Part shown: positions 7,713 through 18,214 of the stretch, in pieces | How the letters are laid out: each line of letters begins with the position of its first letter | How positions within the stretch are numbered: the stretch's first letter is position 1 | Assembly: GCA_905181785.1 (NCBI GenBank) | Contig: CAJIZC010000016.1 | Location: 1-64,000, forward strand | From: an uncultured Candidatus Poseidoniales archaeon | GTDB lineage: Archaea; Thermoplasmatota; Poseidoniia; Poseidoniales; Poseidoniaceae | Direction of reading: 5' to 3' | DNA length: 64,000 nt | Translations under genes and position numbers: made by a program | The notes under the pieces: model-generated | What the model saw: only the letters and a program-made list of their open reading frames with translations | The model's database searches: none | Told to the model about the DNA's origin: nothing

Positions 7713-10700
7713 ATGAATCGCCCGGTGACCACTGCTGTGTTGCTCGTCGCACTGCTCGGAATTGCAGGCTGCTTTGGTGCAGTGGACCCTGTTGAGGAAG
7801 AACAAATCAACGATCCTGTGGTTCTTGAGGCACCACTTATTGAGTGGAGTGCACCAATAGAAACCATTCAACTTGATGGGACTCCAATCGTGCTCCAAGT
7901 GCGCTATTCTGGCGAAGGTTGGGACCTTATGCCGTCTGTTCTCAATCCCGATTACGAGGCGCTAAGCGCCTATGGATGGAGTTCAAGCCCGATTGGCTAT
8001 GCTTTGGAATTTATCCCATCAATGTTGGGCACTTACACCATCGCTGTGGGCATTGAAGCGGTCGATTCTTTGGCTCTAGCACCAGAAGTTGCGGACTTAA
8101 CCCACGAGATTGTCGTCACCCCACCAACAGAATTAGCGCCCATTATCCAAGCACCTAGCAGAGAAATGCTTGAAGAACCAAACTTGTTATGGTTCGAAGG
8201 TGTTGTGATTCACGATGAACTTGATTCTTGTGTGCTTGAATATTCAATTTCCGATGGGTCCTCCGGAGAGATCACCTTGAAGCAAGACGGCTCGTGGAAG
8301 GTTTTACTCGATTTCACTGAAATTGAAACGAGCATGATCATCACCACGCAGGCCACCTGCGGGGTGTTTTCGACCCTAAGCGACACGGTTGAAACAACGG
8401 TTATTCTCGAAGGTGGAGGCGCTGACGCAGATGGCGACAGTGTACTCGATACCGCTGACCGTTGCCCTGAAGGGATTGGAGAATCAGAAGGTTGGAAATC
8501 AAATCCAAACTCCGATAAAGACGGTGATGGCTGCCGCGATAACGATGAGGATGACGATGATGACAACGATGGAGTCCTTGATTTGCATGACCTGTGCCCG
8601 GAATCTTTTGGATGGGTAAGCACCCCAGATGCTGATTTTGATTCAGATGGCTGCCATGACACCGACGAAGATGACGACGATGACAACGATGGCGTCTTGG
8701 ACACCAATGACGCTTGCCCCAACGGCAGAGTCGGTTGGAGTTCCACCCTGTACAGCGATTGGGATGGAGATGGTTGTTTAGATCTGGATGAAGATGAAGA
8801 TGATGACAATGATTTAGCCCTCGATGTCAATGACCTATGCCCGAAAGGGTTTGCTTCTTGGGTTCGAGATGTGAACACTGACTTTGATGACGATGGTTGC
8901 GCCGATGCAACCGAGGATGACGATGATGATAACGATCAGGTTCCCGATGTCAACGCAACCGGTGACCAATTGGACCGATGCCCACAAACTCCACTCAACG
9001 CAACAGATGTGGATGAACGAGGCTGTGCGGCAGTTCAACGGGACACCGACATGGATGGCGTCAGCGATGACATTGATTTGTGTGAAGGAACACCAGTAGG
9101 GCTCACGGTGAACGAAGTTGGTTGTGCTGATTTGGACGATGATGGAGTCTCAGCAAACATCGACCTGTGTCCTGATTCCCCTGCTCGATGGACCATCGAT
9201 GAAGTTGGGTGCGCTGTGGTCCAGTCCCCTGTCGCATGGACGACTGCTTCGAGCATGAACGGACCAATGCAAATTGTCCCTCACTTTTCGGTACCCACGC
9301 TTGATGGCACCTTTTACTTCCAGCAAGAATGGACTGGGTTCGATGTATACTATTTCCTCTTCAAGTACACCGATTCTTCTGGCAATTCCAACGCAGGAAC
9401 GTGGGGTCAAAGCCCTGGGCCATTCATCCGTGGTCTACCGGACAACGTGCATTTGTTCTTCGGATCTTTTGACACCACCTACCATACCGACGTCATCAAC
9501 AGAAAAGCCGCAGTGGATAACGCCCTCAACCCGGATGAAGAAGCTCAATGGGAAGATCGCATCCACTACATCGATCAGCAGGCAGGAAGCATCTCTGGTG
9601 GCCTTGGGGATATGATCACCAGTTTCAACAACCCGAGGTACATGGGAATCGATCGCTTGCAACAGGCACGCGAAACCGGTTCATTGTACGCTTGGACTTC
9701 CCAAACCAACGATGCAATGCATTTGGTTCACGAGCCTCACCAGTGGAACGCTGAGTTCCCTGTCGAAATCCGCAGGCATGACCCTGCCGTACACGAGGTA
9801 ACGGTTTGGGACTTCGACCGCCACACTGGTGGTTGGGGTGGAGGTTTTACTTCCTCCCAAACTGCTTTGTTTCCTTCTAACCTTACGGCCTACGACACAC
9901 TGGAAGTCTACCACGAACATGCATGTTACGAACGAGCCAACCGCTACCAAAATTCAGACGGAAGTTACGGTGGTTGCCATGAATGGGATTATGAAGCAAA
10001 CTTGCGGATTTGCGACCGTGACAACGCCTCATCCTGTGGCACTGAATTCATGCGTTGGATCACAACCTATGGTCGAGAAGGGAAGTGGCTGACCGATGTT
10101 TCACCGTACTTGTTCATGCTCGACAACGATGACAATCGAACCTTCAAGTATCGAGGTGCGAACAAAGGCGACCTCACCGTGTCCTTCCTGTTCAGCGATT
10201 GGGGATCTGGAATCAGAGGCGAAGATGCTACCTTCGCTTTCACAGGAGGCCAATTCGATGGAACCTACAACAATGAGTCAATCTACAACAGGCACCTCAA
10301 CTTTACCGTTCCTTCTTGGGCATCTAAGGTTGAAATTGTTGCTACAATCACCGGCCACGGGTTTGGCAAGGATAACGCCAACTGCGCTGAGTTTTGCGAC
10401 CACCAGCATCACTACTACATGAATGGACAATCAACTTACGAGTGGCACCCACTTGTCTATTCCAATGAAGGTTGTGAAAATGAAGTGCAGAACGGGGTCG
10501 TTGCCAACCAGTTTGGATCATGGCCATATGGACGTGCAGGTTGGTGCGCTGGGCAAGATGTCAAGCAGTGGACCTACGACATTACCTCTTGGAGCGACAT
10601 GACCGGCGGCAACAATCACTTGTCATACAAGGGCTTGTTCAACGGTCAAGAATACGTTCCATCCGATGGAATTGGAAATGGACAACGTAACATTCACGCA

Positions 10701-10742
10701 GAGATATGGGTTGTGTATTACAACACAACAAACGTTGCGTGA
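7713..10742 (+). CDS. Surface lipoprotein with TSP3-like repeats and PNGase F-like C-terminal region
   Basis: PNGase F hydrolyses the bond between N-linked glycans and asparagine. The chosen ATG gives a 1009-residue protein with a lipoprotein-type signal peptide ending LLGIAGC; upstream starts lack it. Residues about 235-505 hold Asp-rich calcium-binding repeats. The C-terminal part (from about residue 690) resembles the two jelly-roll domains of PNGase F: GCHEWDYEANLRI matches the bacterial CDEWDRYANVYV segment, aligning D759 with catalytic Asp60. NCAEFCDHQHHYYMNG matches the CAEWC segment, aligning E893 with Glu206, and PYGRAGWCAGQDV matches the DRAGWCPG segment. The position of bacterial Glu118 falls in FLFSDWGSG and is not clearly conserved. 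I recall these motifs from the Elizabethkingia enzyme and did not align them by computation. True glycosidase activity is unproven; a copper monooxygenase-like relative sharing the fold is the alternative. Confidence 0.75.
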   Translation: MNRPVTTAVLLVALLGIAGCFGAVDPVEEEQINDPVVLEAPLIEWSAPIETIQLDGTPIVLQVRYSGEGWDLMPSVLNPDYEALSAYGWSSSPIGYALEFIPSMLGTYTIAVGIEAVDSLALAPEVADLTHEIVVTPPTELAPIIQAPSREMLEEPNLLWFEGVVIHDELDSCVLEYSISDGSSGEITLKQDGSWKVLLDFTEIETSMIITTQATCGVFSTLSDTVETTVILEGGGADADGDSVLDTADRCPEGIGESEGWKSNPNSDKDGDGCRDNDEDDDDDNDGVLDLHDLCPESFGWVSTPDADFDSDGCHDTDEDDDDDNDGVLDTNDACPNGRVGWSSTLYSDWDGDGCLDLDEDEDDDNDLALDVNDLCPKGFASWVRDVNTDFDDDGCADATEDDDDDNDQVPDVNATGDQLDRCPQTPLNATDVDERGCAAVQRDTDMDGVSDDIDLCEGTPVGLTVNEVGCADLDDDGVSANIDLCPDSPARWTIDEVGCAVVQSPVAWTTASSMNGPMQIVPHFSVPTLDGTFYFQQEWTGFDVYYFLFKYTDSSGNSNAGTWGQSPGPFIRGLPDNVHLFFGSFDTTYHTDVINRKAAVDNALNPDEEAQWEDRIHYIDQQAGSISGGLGDMITSFNNPRYMGIDRLQQARETGSLYAWTSQTNDAMHLVHEPHQWNAEFPVEIRRHDPAVHEVTVWDFDRHTGGWGGGFTSSQTALFPSNLTAYDTLEVYHEHACYERANRYQNSDGSYGGCHEWDYEANLRICDRDNASSCGTEFMRWITTYGREGKWLTDVSPYLFMLDNDDNRTFKYRGANKGDLTVSFLFSDWGSGIRGEDATFAFTGGQFDGTYNNESIYNRHLNFTVPSWASKVEIVATITGHGFGKDNANCAEFCDHQHHYYMNGQSTYEWHPLVYSNEGCENEVQNGVVANQFGSWPYGRAGWCAGQDVKQWTYDITSWSDMTGGNNHLSYKGLFNGQEYVPSDGIGNGQRNIHAEIWVVYYNTTNVA
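8412..9230 (+). repeat. Coding repeats: Asp-rich thrombospondin type 3-like units
   Basis: Within the lipoprotein gene, about seven units share a DxDxDG and C-P pattern. Four near-identical acidic blocks of the form DEDDDDDNDGVLD recur about every 40 residues, each followed by a DLCP-like cysteine. Such repeats bind calcium and form a rigid stalk in known thrombospondin-type proteins. Here they separate the N-terminal domain from the PNGase F-like region. Confidence 0.85.
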
Positions 10743-15015: not shown

Positions 15016-18000
15016 TCAATCTGTTGCGAAGGGATCGCACAATTCACCTTGTCCTGGGAAACTTGTCGGATCTCGGGGGTTTGTATCCCACTTGTATTCG
15101 CAATAATTGACGTGTCCATCACCGTCTTGATCGACCATTCGGTCAGCAGCGTCTTCGGGGTCAAACTGGAAGTGGAATTCCCAACCTGTTGCCATTCCGT
15201 CACCGTCGCCATCTTGGTAGTAGACTTCCGGTCCATCGTTCCAATCATCGCCATCAGTGTCGTTCGTGATTGGGTTGGTTCCATTTTCAAATTCTTCAAA
15301 GTTTGTGTAATTCTCAAGGTTGTCATAGAACCGCTTGCCGTCAGGGGAATCGGGATCAATGTTGCACTCTGAGTTGGTTGTATCATTGTAGCCAGGGCAG
15401 TATTTCTTAATCAGACCGGTTCTGTTCAAACCGTCGAGATCAGGGTCTTCCAGACCGTCTTCAATACCGTCAAGGTCACTGTCAGGCATGGATGGATCAA
15501 GAACACCACGTGCTCCGTATGCGCTCACGGTAGCGTTGTCGACAAGACCTGCCTCAAGCGCAAGGCCAGAGTAGTACACTTCCCAGCCGTCAGGGAGCAT
15601 GTCCGAATCGGTGTCATCATCCACTGGGTTCGTGTTCCATTTGTCTGGAGCTTCCGCCCCGTTTGCAAGCGAGTCGTTATCGATGTCAAAGGTATCGTCC
15701 TTGAGTGAATCAAGCGAGGGATCCAACGCCCAACGACCGTTACAAGAACAGAAATCATTGACCGGCATTGCAAATCCTGTGAGGTTCATTTCCGCAACAG
15801 TGAACATTGGTTCAATCACAAAGCCGCCAAGGTTGTTTTGCCACACATATCCGCCTGCTTGCATCGAACAGTCATTTGTTTGCGAAGCGACGCATCCTGG
15901 TCGAGTCCATGTAGAGGTCACAACCCATAGGCTGTGTGAATTGGTGTTCTCTTCAGCAGATTTCACTTGCATTTCCCATCCATCCAGCATGCCGTCGCCA
16001 TCGGTGTCGTTGATGAGTGGATTTGTTGGGTTTTGATATGGGCGAGGCACAAACAATACTTCGTTCCCATCGATCAGACTGTCGTTATCTGTGTCGGAGT
16101 TGTTTGCGTGGGTGAGGAAGTTGTCCTTTCCAGCAATTACTTCTTCACCGTCTTCCAAACCATCGTTATCTGTGTCAAACATACAAGGGCTGGTGAAGTA
16201 AGCGATTCCTTCCCATGAGAACCCAGAAAGGGCCTCTGTTTGATCGCCCAAGCCGTCTCCATCAGTGTCTGGGTTGGAGGCGTTTGAACCACCTGTGCAG
16301 ACCGTGGCAAATTCGTTGTAATCGGAAAGGCCGTCTTCATCGGTATCAAACAATCCTGGATCGGAAGTGACCCATGTGCGAATAACACCGTTGTTGACAA
16401 CAAGGATCTCCCAACCCATTACTTCAATCCCATCGATGAGTCCATCACCGTCGGTGTCAGGGTTGAGGGGGTCAGTCGAACGCCCGTCGATGATTCCATC
16501 TCCGTCACGATCACGTGCATTGTATTCCATCAGGTTGGTGAATTGTTCTTCCGGTTCGACAATTTCCATCCAAGTGAAAAGACGCGATTCAACAGCTTGC
16601 CCAATGGAAACGTGGATTTCATAGACATAGCCGGAAACAGGAGCAACCATCGGAATGGTTTGCTTATTACCACCAGCGAGTGTGATTTGAGCACGCGCAA
16701 CTGTGGAATTGGCTTCGACCCACTGGTCTTCGATGACATCGATGCCGATGACTACAGCGGTGTATTCGAGGGTCTCGTAACGCACAGCCCCATCGCCATC
16801 TGCGTCCCATCCGTCGTGGTCAGGGTCGAGGTCGCCATTTGCACCGTCCCTTGGATGGAGTCCATTGGTGGCTTCCCATCCGTCGGGCATGCCATCCAAA
16901 TCGGTGTCCATGCGCCAAGGTGAAGTGAAGTTCGTTGGACCGAAAATGTTGGCAACTTGATACTCCTCGTAGTTGTTCATTCCGTCTTCGTCCCAGTCAC
17001 CGTACCCATCGGAAGCGTTCGCAGGGTTGAGCGTCTCGAGAGCGTTGTTCATTGGTTGATCAGCGACGTTGGAATAGCAGTACTCAAATCCGTCTGGCAT
17101 ACCATCGCCGTCGGTGTCCCAGTCTGAAGGACCGTTGAGCAATCCATCGTTATCCATGTCCATCATGAACCAAGATCGTTCTTGGTTCTGGAACGGAGCG
17201 GTGCGGGTGATCGGGTCGAGCAATGGAATGTTGCATGATTCACCAACTCCAATAAAGAGGCCAACGGAGGTGTTAGAAACTTCAACAATATCATCAATCA
17301 AGTCCATGTCGGAATCACGGGCTGTAGGATTTGTACCAAATGCTTCTTCTTCGAAGTTAGCGAGTCCGTCATCGTCGGTGTCAAGGACCATGTCACATGA
17401 ATGGGCACCGATTGAATTTCCTAGATCGTCCCAATCAGCAGCGCCGCCTTCCCCGTTGTATCGGGTGGACAGTGTGTCCTCCATGGCTTGGTCGAGCAAG
17501 AGGCAATCCCAGTTGCCGTTGAGTGGGTTGAACAACGTCACATCGCCACCAGGTGTTTGAACAGTCATGGTGTAAAGCGACTCCCAACGGTCATTGAGAC
17601 CGTCATTGTCTGTGTCGCTTCGTTGAGGGTCTGTACCGAGTTCTTCTTCGATTTTGTTGATGAGTCCGTCGCGGTCAGGATCGCCATTTGGTCCTTGACT
17701 TGGGTCAGGCCATGAATCAGATTCATTGGCGATATTTGCGTCGTCGGTATCTGCTTCGCCGGGGTCTTGGAGCAGGTCTTCGGATTCGCCGTTATCCAGC
17801 GGATTGAGACCATGGTCAACTTCCCAACCATCGCTCATTCCGTCTTTATCGGTGTCCGGATCTTCCGGATCGGTACCGTATTGAGTGTTTTCCAACACAT
17901 CAGACAGGCCGTCGCCGTCGGTGTCTGTGGCGATACCGAGGGTGGTACCTCCACCTCGCAAATCATCATCGGCTGCGCTCTCGAATCCACCCAAGCCTTC

Positions 18001-18099
18001 GCTGGTTTGGAAGTAGCCGGAAAGTCCGACGAATATAGAGCCAAAAATCAAGGTTGAAACAATAGCAGCGTAGGCCATCTGGTTGTGATTGAGCGACAT
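15016..18099 (-). CDS. N-terminally anchored surface protein with many DTDGDG calcium-binding repeats
   Basis: The 1027-residue product has one N-terminal hydrophobic segment (residues about 8-30, MAYAAIVSTLIFGSIFVGLSG) serving as signal or anchor. It then has some twenty DxDxDGxxDxxE-type repeats (for example ATDTDGDGLSDVLE, DTDKDGMSDGWEV, DTDGDGLIDGIEV), characteristic of thrombospondin type 3 and bacterial adhesion stalks. A few longer non-repeat insertions occur, including one near residues 455-520 with the sequence VVIGIDVIEDQWVEANSTV. No C-terminal anchor is seen. The role is structural or adhesive by inference. An alternative ATG lies 18 nt upstream. Composition is very acidic compared with neighbours. 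Confidence 0.8.
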   Translation of the reverse strand: MSLNHNQMAYAAIVSTLIFGSIFVGLSGYFQTSEGLGGFESAADDDLRGGGTTLGIATDTDGDGLSDVLENTQYGTDPEDPDTDKDGMSDGWEVDHGLNPLDNGESEDLLQDPGEADTDDANIANESDSWPDPSQGPNGDPDRDGLINKIEEELGTDPQRSDTDNDGLNDRWESLYTMTVQTPGGDVTLFNPLNGNWDCLLLDQAMEDTLSTRYNGEGGAADWDDLGNSIGAHSCDMVLDTDDDGLANFEEEAFGTNPTARDSDMDLIDDIVEVSNTSVGLFIGVGESCNIPLLDPITRTAPFQNQERSWFMMDMDNDGLLNGPSDWDTDGDGMPDGFEYCYSNVADQPMNNALETLNPANASDGYGDWDEDGMNNYEEYQVANIFGPTNFTSPWRMDTDLDGMPDGWEATNGLHPRDGANGDLDPDHDGWDADGDGAVRYETLEYTAVVIGIDVIEDQWVEANSTVARAQITLAGGNKQTIPMVAPVSGYVYEIHVSIGQAVESRLFTWMEIVEPEEQFTNLMEYNARDRDGDGIIDGRSTDPLNPDTDGDGLIDGIEVMGWEILVVNNGVIRTWVTSDPGLFDTDEDGLSDYNEFATVCTGGSNASNPDTDGDGLGDQTEALSGFSWEGIAYFTSPCMFDTDNDGLEDGEEVIAGKDNFLTHANNSDTDNDSLIDGNEVLFVPRPYQNPTNPLINDTDGDGMLDGWEMQVKSAEENTNSHSLWVVTSTWTRPGCVASQTNDCSMQAGGYVWQNNLGGFVIEPMFTVAEMNLTGFAMPVNDFCSCNGRWALDPSLDSLKDDTFDIDNDSLANGAEAPDKWNTNPVDDDTDSDMLPDGWEVYYSGLALEAGLVDNATVSAYGARGVLDPSMPDSDLDGIEDGLEDPDLDGLNRTGLIKKYCPGYNDTTNSECNIDPDSPDGKRFYDNLENYTNFEEFENGTNPITNDTDGDDWNDGPEVYYQDGDGDGMATGWEFHFQFDPEDAADRMVDQDGDGHVNYCEYKWDTNPRDPTSFPGQGELCDPFATD

Positions 18100-18214
18100 A
18101 AAGAACACCATGCACATCTGTGCAAGTTTCCCGAGTCCATGCAGTGGTTATAGTCCTTAACCATAGATGGGCGGATTTCGTGTGTTGCCTAGCGCTGAAT
18201 CGCCTCACAGGACC

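What the first reader, a model, noticed from the sequence alone, without database searches (positions are those of the whole stretch)
7713..10742. PNGase F-like lipoprotein on a TSP3 calcium-binding stalk in an archaeon
Seen: a lipoprotein signal, a row of Asp-rich repeats, and a C-terminal region whose GCHEWDYEAN, NCAEFC and PYGRAGWCAG segments line up with PNGase F. D759 and E893 align with catalytic Asp60 and Glu206; the Glu118 position is not clearly kept. Known: PNGase F is a bacterial deglycosidase with a two-jelly-roll fold shared with copper monooxygenases. Inference: a surface enzyme that removes N-glycans from marine glycoproteins before proteolysis by the subtilases in this window, or a diverged glycan binder.
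Basis: partly seen in the sequence, partly recalled or inferred. Interest (0 to 1): 0.75.

Follow-up and report, generated by a model that had tools for sequence, protein, structure and literature searches.

The report
Fish-type glycan-removing enzyme in marine archaea
A common group of ocean archaea carries on its cell surface an enzyme of the kind that fish eggs use to strip sugar chains off proteins, held out on a long calcium-binding stalk; it probably bares marine glycoproteins for digestion, and its exact activity is untested.

Summary
Window 7713-10742 (+) encodes a 1009-residue lipoprotein of a Poseidoniaceae (Marine Group II) archaeon: lipobox, two Ig-like domains, an Asp/Cys-rich TSP3-like stalk and a C-terminal PNGase domain. 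By sequence it is zebrafish Ngly2, the fish acid PNGase published in November 2025 (E 8e-41, against 4e-7 for PNGase F). The archaeal protein also has Ngly2's redox-dead thioredoxin-like domain before the PNGase domain, but lacks the protease-associated (PA) domain that is inserted there in Ngly2 and overhangs its active site. Catalytic Asp and Glu (D759, E893), R941, H882 and four cysteine pairs are kept in essentially every complete relative examined. Missing Glu118 is no objection: active Ngly2 has Ala there, and type II PNGases have Gly, which makes room for core alpha-1,3-fucose. A predicted fold hits Ngly2 first (E 4.6e-23). The gene sits at the same place in both Poseidoniales families, is under strong purifying selection, and a divergent form occurs elsewhere in the class. 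I found no report of this enzyme family in archaea. Most likely it is an active, surface-tethered PNGase that opens glycoproteins for proteolysis. Activity, pH optimum and substrate remain untested.

The parts
7713..7772 (+). Signal peptide and lipobox (LLGIAGC, lipidated Cys20)
   Evidence: lipobox-like motifs in relatives
7836..8120 (+). Ig-like beta-sandwich 1 (residues about 42-136)
   Evidence: AF2 model of residues 21-520, Foldseek hits to Ig-like tandems
8142..8408 (+). Ig-like beta-sandwich 2 (residues about 144-232)
8418..9215 (+). Asp/Cys-rich TSP3-like stalk (residues 236-501; 8 strict DxDxDG motifs, 14 Cys)
   Evidence: near-invariant Asp/Cys/Gly ladder in 49 aligned sequences; extended, pLDDT about 80
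9267..9677 (+). Thioredoxin-like domain without cysteines, no PA insertion (residues about 519-655)
   Evidence: profile of 18 archaeal sequences hits only Ngly2 in the PDB, E 0.0013, at its Tx-like domain;
9714..9779 (+). Linker helix (residues about 668-689)
   Evidence: AF2 model; Ngly2 has a helical linker at the same place
9786..10739 (+). PNGase domain, double jelly roll (residues 692-1009)
9984..9989 (+). W758-D759, equivalent to W59-D60 (PNGase F) and W420-D421 (Ngly2)
10356..10358 (+). H882, equivalent to Ngly2 H546 (W191 in PNGase F)
10389..10391 (+). E893, equivalent to E206 (PNGase F) and E555 (Ngly2)
10533..10535 (+). R941, equivalent to R248 (PNGase F)

Best explanation
It is a surface-anchored peptide:N-glycanase of the Ngly2 type. 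The lipidated cysteine fixes the protein to the outer face of the cell membrane. Two Ig-like domains and a calcium-rigidified TSP3-like stalk hold the catalytic head away from the cell surface. The head (thioredoxin-like scaffold plus double-jelly-roll PNGase domain) hydrolyses the Asn-GlcNAc amide bond of N-glycoproteins with D759 and E893, turning Asn into Asp and freeing the glycan. Because the PA domain that narrows the cleft of Ngly2 is absent, and no acidic residue is seen at the Glu118 position, it is predicted to accept less flexible substrates than Ngly2 and possibly core alpha-1,3-fucosylated glycans, as algae and invertebrates may carry. The benefit is most likely access to the protein, not the sugar: the deglycosylated protein is opened to the cell's extracellular peptidases. 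Shown here: domains, conservation of catalytic residues, predicted fold, distribution. Inferred: activity, calcium binding, specificity, ecological role.
For: Best solved relative is the biochemically proven Ngly2, whose D421A and E555A mutants are dead (PMC12753239); both residues are kept. Signature motifs are present in essentially all complete relatives. PNGase F Cys51/56, 204/208 and 231/252 positions are kept, plus the extra pair C767/C775 seen in Ngly2, Deinococcus and archaea but not PNGase F. Predicted fold: Ngly2 4.6e-23, PNGase F TM 0.64. dN/dS about 0.03 for the C-terminal half. No GH20 or GH92 in 58 family genomes; the GH38 of a few genera lacks a signal peptide in the one sequence read. 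The literature describes these archaea as extracellular protein degraders with few glycoside hydrolases (PMC6864105, PMC6336850).
Against: No activity is shown. The model has low confidence in the loops that hold D759 and R941, so pocket geometry is not established. Trp120/Trp480, which touches the inner sugars, is not evident in MGII. Extra MGII-only histidines (H734, H736, H756) near the active site are unexplained. H882, as in acid-active Ngly2, may not suit seawater pH. The gene's neighbours show no functional link. Self-deglycosylation is not excluded: the genome has an STT3 oligosaccharyltransferase.
Confidence: 0.75

Rival explanations
1. Active PNGase, but directed at the cell's own (or neighbouring archaea's) N-glycoproteins, as a surface remodelling or recycling enzyme rather than a feeding enzyme.
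For: STT3/AglB-type oligosaccharyltransferase gene in the same genome; the enzyme is tethered to the cell, not released; near-core gene in the family (37 of 43 genomes sampled).
Against: PNGase F-type enzymes need a GlcNAc-type core; archaeal N-glycans often use other linking sugars (own knowledge). Many genomes of the sister family lack the gene, and whether STT3 tracks it was not tested.
Confidence: 0.13
2. Catalytically silent or altered relative: a glycan-binding adhesin that attaches cells to glycoprotein-rich particles.
For: Ig-like domains and long stalk resemble adhesins; Trp120 and Glu118 equivalents not kept; Tx-like domain is already redox-dead.
Against: D759, E893 and R941 kept in essentially all complete relatives over deep divergence; dN/dS lower in the catalytic half (0.027) than in the N-terminal half (0.078).
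Confidence: 0.08
3. Copper- or other metal-dependent oxidase/monooxygenase built on the same double jelly roll as PHM.
For: PHM is the next fold neighbour; MGII proteins have extra histidines H734, H736, H756, H897 beside H899.
Against: PHM match far weaker than Ngly2/PNGase F (1e-5 against 4.6e-23); H734, H736 and H756 absent from the related class members, Deinococcus and Ngly2; PNGase catalytic pair intact.
Confidence: 0.03

Closest known systems
Zebrafish Ngly2 (Si:dkey-256h2.1, PDB 9lwg; acid PNGase of fish and other aquatic animals, PMC12753239)
   Same: Thioredoxin-like domain without CxxC + linker helix + PNGase domain in that order; catalytic Asp/Glu, Trp420, His546, Arg604, extra Cys429/437 pair; best match by sequence and by predicted fold
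   Different: Archaeal protein lacks the PA domain inserted in the Tx-like domain, has Tyr for His422, no clear Trp480, and sits on a lipid-anchored Ig + TSP3-like stalk; Ngly2 is lysosomal and dimeric
Deinococcus radiodurans WP_010889584 (PNGase F-related lipoprotein, on plasmid 3 of isolate DRR11)
   Same: 36% identical PNGase domain, same extra cysteines, His at the Trp191 position, lipobox
   Different: Has a PA-like domain and no stalk; groups with Ngly2 rather than the MGII proteins (99/96 support); its Tx-like part is not detectable from the archaeal profile
PNGase F (Elizabethkingia meningoseptica, PDB 1pnf/1png)
   Same: Double jelly roll; D60, E206, R248, W59; three cysteine pairs
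   Different: No Tx-like domain or stalk; Glu118, Trp191, Arg61, Trp207 not kept in the archaeal protein; only 4e-7 by sequence
Type II PNGases (PNGF-II 4r4x; Bacteroides plant-glycan PNGase 7zgn)
   Same: Double jelly roll; no Glu at the Glu118 position, which in type II admits core alpha-1,3-fucose (PMC9522356)
   Different: Bowl-like N-terminal domain instead of Tx-like; about 10% identity by fold alignment

Membership tests
PNGase F superfamily (PF09112/PF09113) | Match to N-glycanase_C (PF09113) above curated cut-off | tested here: met
   74.3 against 25 bits; all 50 aligned members match
PNGase F superfamily (PF09112/PF09113) | Match to N-glycanase_N (PF09112) | tested here: inconclusive
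   not listed for this protein at E<=1; 7 of 50 relatives match weakly, best 0.069
PNGase F superfamily (PF09112/PF09113) | Catalytic Asp60, Glu206 and active-site Arg248 | tested here: met
   D759, E893, R941 in all groups compared
PNGase F superfamily (PF09112/PF09113) | Double jelly-roll fold | tested here: met
   AF2 model, pTM 0.66; Foldseek 9lwg 4.6e-23, 1png 1.4e-10
PNGase F superfamily (PF09112/PF09113) | Catalytic Asp and Glu in one pocket | not testable with these tools
   no coordinates returned; D759 loop below pLDDT 50
PNGase F superfamily (PF09112/PF09113) | Release of N-glycans | not testable with these tools
   needs assay
PNGase F proper (type I) | Glu118 and Trp191 | tested here: not met
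   no acidic residue near that position by alignment; His882 at Trp191
Ngly2-type acid PNGase | Redox-dead thioredoxin-like domain before the PNGase domain | tested here: met
   no Cys in residues 516-690
Ngly2-type acid PNGase | PA domain inserted in the Tx-like domain | tested here: not met
   archaeal region is too short and resumes directly at 'GIDR'
Ngly2-type acid PNGase | His422 and His546 near the active site | tested here: inconclusive
   H546 kept as H882; H422 replaced by Y760
Ngly2-type acid PNGase | Acid pH optimum | not testable with these tools
   needs assay
Thrombospondin type 3 repeats | Curated Pfam TSP_3 match | tested here: not met
   11.6 against 25 bits; motif ladder present, hence 'TSP3-like'
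PHM-type copper monooxygenase | Conserved copper-ligand histidines and best fold match to PHM | tested here: not met
   PHM weaker than the PNGases; most extra His confined to MGII

The most novel reading that the evidence does not exclude
Poseidoniia archaea hold an independent, PA-less branch of the Ngly2 lineage, so the enzyme behind free N-glycans in fish eggs belongs to an older family shared between aquatic animals, bacteria and marine archaea. The archaeal form is a membrane-tethered deglycosylase tuned to marine (possibly alpha-1,3-fucosylated) N-glycoproteins, with an MGII-specific histidine set giving it a distinct chemistry or pH range.
Probability: 0.35. Interest if true: 0.75.

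Novelty: new variant of a known kind. Interest (0 to 1): 0.58.

Why it matters
Marine Group II archaea are among the most abundant surface-ocean archaea, are uncultured, and are thought to live on proteins, yet they encode few glycoside hydrolases. PNGases are amidases, not glycoside hydrolases, so CAZyme-based surveys would not be expected to list them. A surface PNGase would explain how they reach glycosylated proteins and, as far as I could find, would be the first enzyme of this family reported from archaea. It also gives a PA-less natural variant of Ngly2, a direct test of the idea that the PA domain restricts that enzyme to flexible substrates, and a candidate reagent enzyme.

Tried and rejected
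Viral contigs: two scans, no relative. Phage records: none. Plasmids: only Deinococcus, plus a weak Hymenobacter hit with the Deinococcus query. The one genome-contig scan, made with a single sequence, returned Poseidoniales plus one record titled as a bacterium (L037) that carries the archaeal locus, so the bacterial side of the family is undersampled here. Profile alignment of the archaeal Tx-like region with the Deinococcus N-terminus found nothing significant, so a Tx-like domain in Deinococcus is unproven by sequence. Idea that released sugars are digested outside the cell: no GH20 or GH92. Idea that PNGase and GH38 mannosidase exclude each other: rejected, they co-occur. Copper monooxygenase: rejected as above. 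dN/dS against more distant relatives was saturated. The tree leaves it open whether the two archaeal groups are each other's closest kin; PNGase F is too distant to root it.

Full report
What is there. Window 7713-10742 (+) encodes a 1009-residue protein. The window lies in a genome bin of 1.66 Mb, 80% complete. The closest public loci are Candidatus Poseidoniaceae / Marine Group II archaea (97% identical over the PNGase half in UBA9513; 88% in the MG-II chromosome CM001443). The order of parts is: lipobox signal peptide (1-20); two Ig-like domains (about 42-232); TSP3-like stalk (236-501; 8 strict DxDxDG motifs against 0.5 expected, 14 cysteines); cysteine-free thioredoxin-like domain (about 519-655); linker helix (668-689); PNGase domain (692-1009).

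The closest relative is Ngly2, not PNGase F. phmmer against all PDB chains gives zebrafish Ngly2 (9lwg) at 8.2e-41 and PNGase F at 3.8e-7. A profile of 50 archaeal sequences gives 1.4e-52 and about 4e-9, and matches Ngly2 in two collinear stretches, one of them its thioredoxin-like domain. A profile of the thioredoxin-like region alone, built from 18 sequences of three archaeal families, hits a single sequence in the PDB: Ngly2, E 0.0013, at chain residues 84-190 (59-165 in the paper's numbering; the Tx-like domain is 58-185 plus 319-343). The region that follows the PA insertion in Ngly2 ('FGID') lines up with the archaeal 'YGIDRFQ', at a score too low to count alone. The archaeal protein therefore has the Tx-like + PNGase core without the PA insertion.

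Active site. D759/E893 correspond to D60/E206 of PNGase F and D421/E555 of Ngly2; alanine mutants of the latter are inactive (PMC12753239). W758, R941, H899 and the cysteine pairs of PNGase F are kept. Features shared with Ngly2 and Deinococcus but not with PNGase F are the extra pair C767/C775, H882 at Trp191, F894 at Trp207 and G940 at Asp247. The signature is present in all complete relatives tested; the two failures are an ambiguous base (L111) and an interrupted reading frame (L026). Glu118: by the TETW/TAPW anchor, active Ngly2 has Ala478 there, and type II enzymes have Gly, which admits core alpha-1,3-fucose (PMC9522356). The MGII proteins have an invariant Gly-Ala stretch in this loop, but alignment there is uncertain, so fucose tolerance is a prediction. 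The Trp120/Trp480 position seems lost in MGII but a Trp is kept nearby in the more distant class members and Deinococcus.

Fold. The AF2 model of residues 516-1009 has mean pLDDT 68.6 and pTM 0.66. Foldseek ranks Ngly2 first (4.6e-23 over 644 columns), then PNGase F (TM 0.64 by target), type II PNGases, and at about 1e-5 the copper enzyme PHM. The loops with D759 and R941 are poorly modelled, so catalytic geometry was not measured.

Distribution and context. 108 relatives were confirmed in genome contigs. In 293 Thermoplasmatota genomes, 51 have PF09113, all in the same class: 37 of 43 in this family, 10 in the sister family, 4 in a third (probably Marine Group III, my inference). The neighbourhood topoisomerase / FAD reductase / membrane protein / PNGase / CofH-like / M24 peptidase is conserved in both Poseidoniales families but not in the third family, which points to vertical inheritance within the order. 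dN/dS against the nearest relative is 0.027 for the C-terminal half and 0.078 for the N-terminal half. Neighbours do not suggest an operon with a glycan function.

Role. Published work describes these archaea as extracellular protein degraders with few glycoside hydrolases (PMC6864105, PMC6336850). I found no GH20 or GH92 in 58 genomes of the family. GH38 is confined to a few genera and lacks a signal peptide in the one sequence I read. This favours deglycosylation for access to protein. The genome also has an STT3-type oligosaccharyltransferase, so action on its own glycoproteins remains possible.

Novelty. The paper on Ngly2 speaks of animals and bacteria and does not contain the string 'archae'; another paper calls PNGase F widespread in bacteria (PMC8812541). 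Three library searches for PNGase in these archaea found nothing relevant; the library lacks most subscription journals. I rate it a new variant of a known kind: known chemistry by all indications, new branch, new architecture, and a domain of life from which I found no report of the family.

Noticed in passing
window residues H734, H736, H756, H897 (nt 9912-9920, 9978-9980, 10401-10403): Histidines flanking the active-site motifs: H736, H756 and H897 invariant in the Poseidoniales rows compared, H734 in this family only; all but H897 absent from the related class members, and all absent from Deinococcus and Ngly2. Metal site or pH tuning cannot be told.
   Followed up: partly
window 15019-18117 (-): 1033-residue secreted-looking protein with many DxDxDG repeats (TSP3_bac), with matches of 69-93% identity in relatives of this family near the same locus; no catalytic domain seen.
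   Followed up: partly
L127, L128 (other Poseidoniaceae genera): A GH38 alpha-mannosidase limited to three genera (8 of 58 genomes); no signal peptide in the one read, possibly for mannosylglycerate.
   Followed up: partly
L105-L108: Divergent PNGase lipoproteins of another family of the class, with a long insertion after the WD motif and a different genomic context; the tree puts them nearer Ngly2/Deinococcus with moderate support (93/93).
   Followed up: partly
G000:C3:34807-35583 (L125): STT3 match lies in an open frame of 3186 residues, unusually long for an oligosaccharyltransferase.
   Followed up: no
L037 (CALDQY010000189.1): Record titled 'uncultured Rhodobiaceae bacterium' carries this archaeal gene at 72% identity; probably a misnamed or mixed bin.
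   Followed up: no
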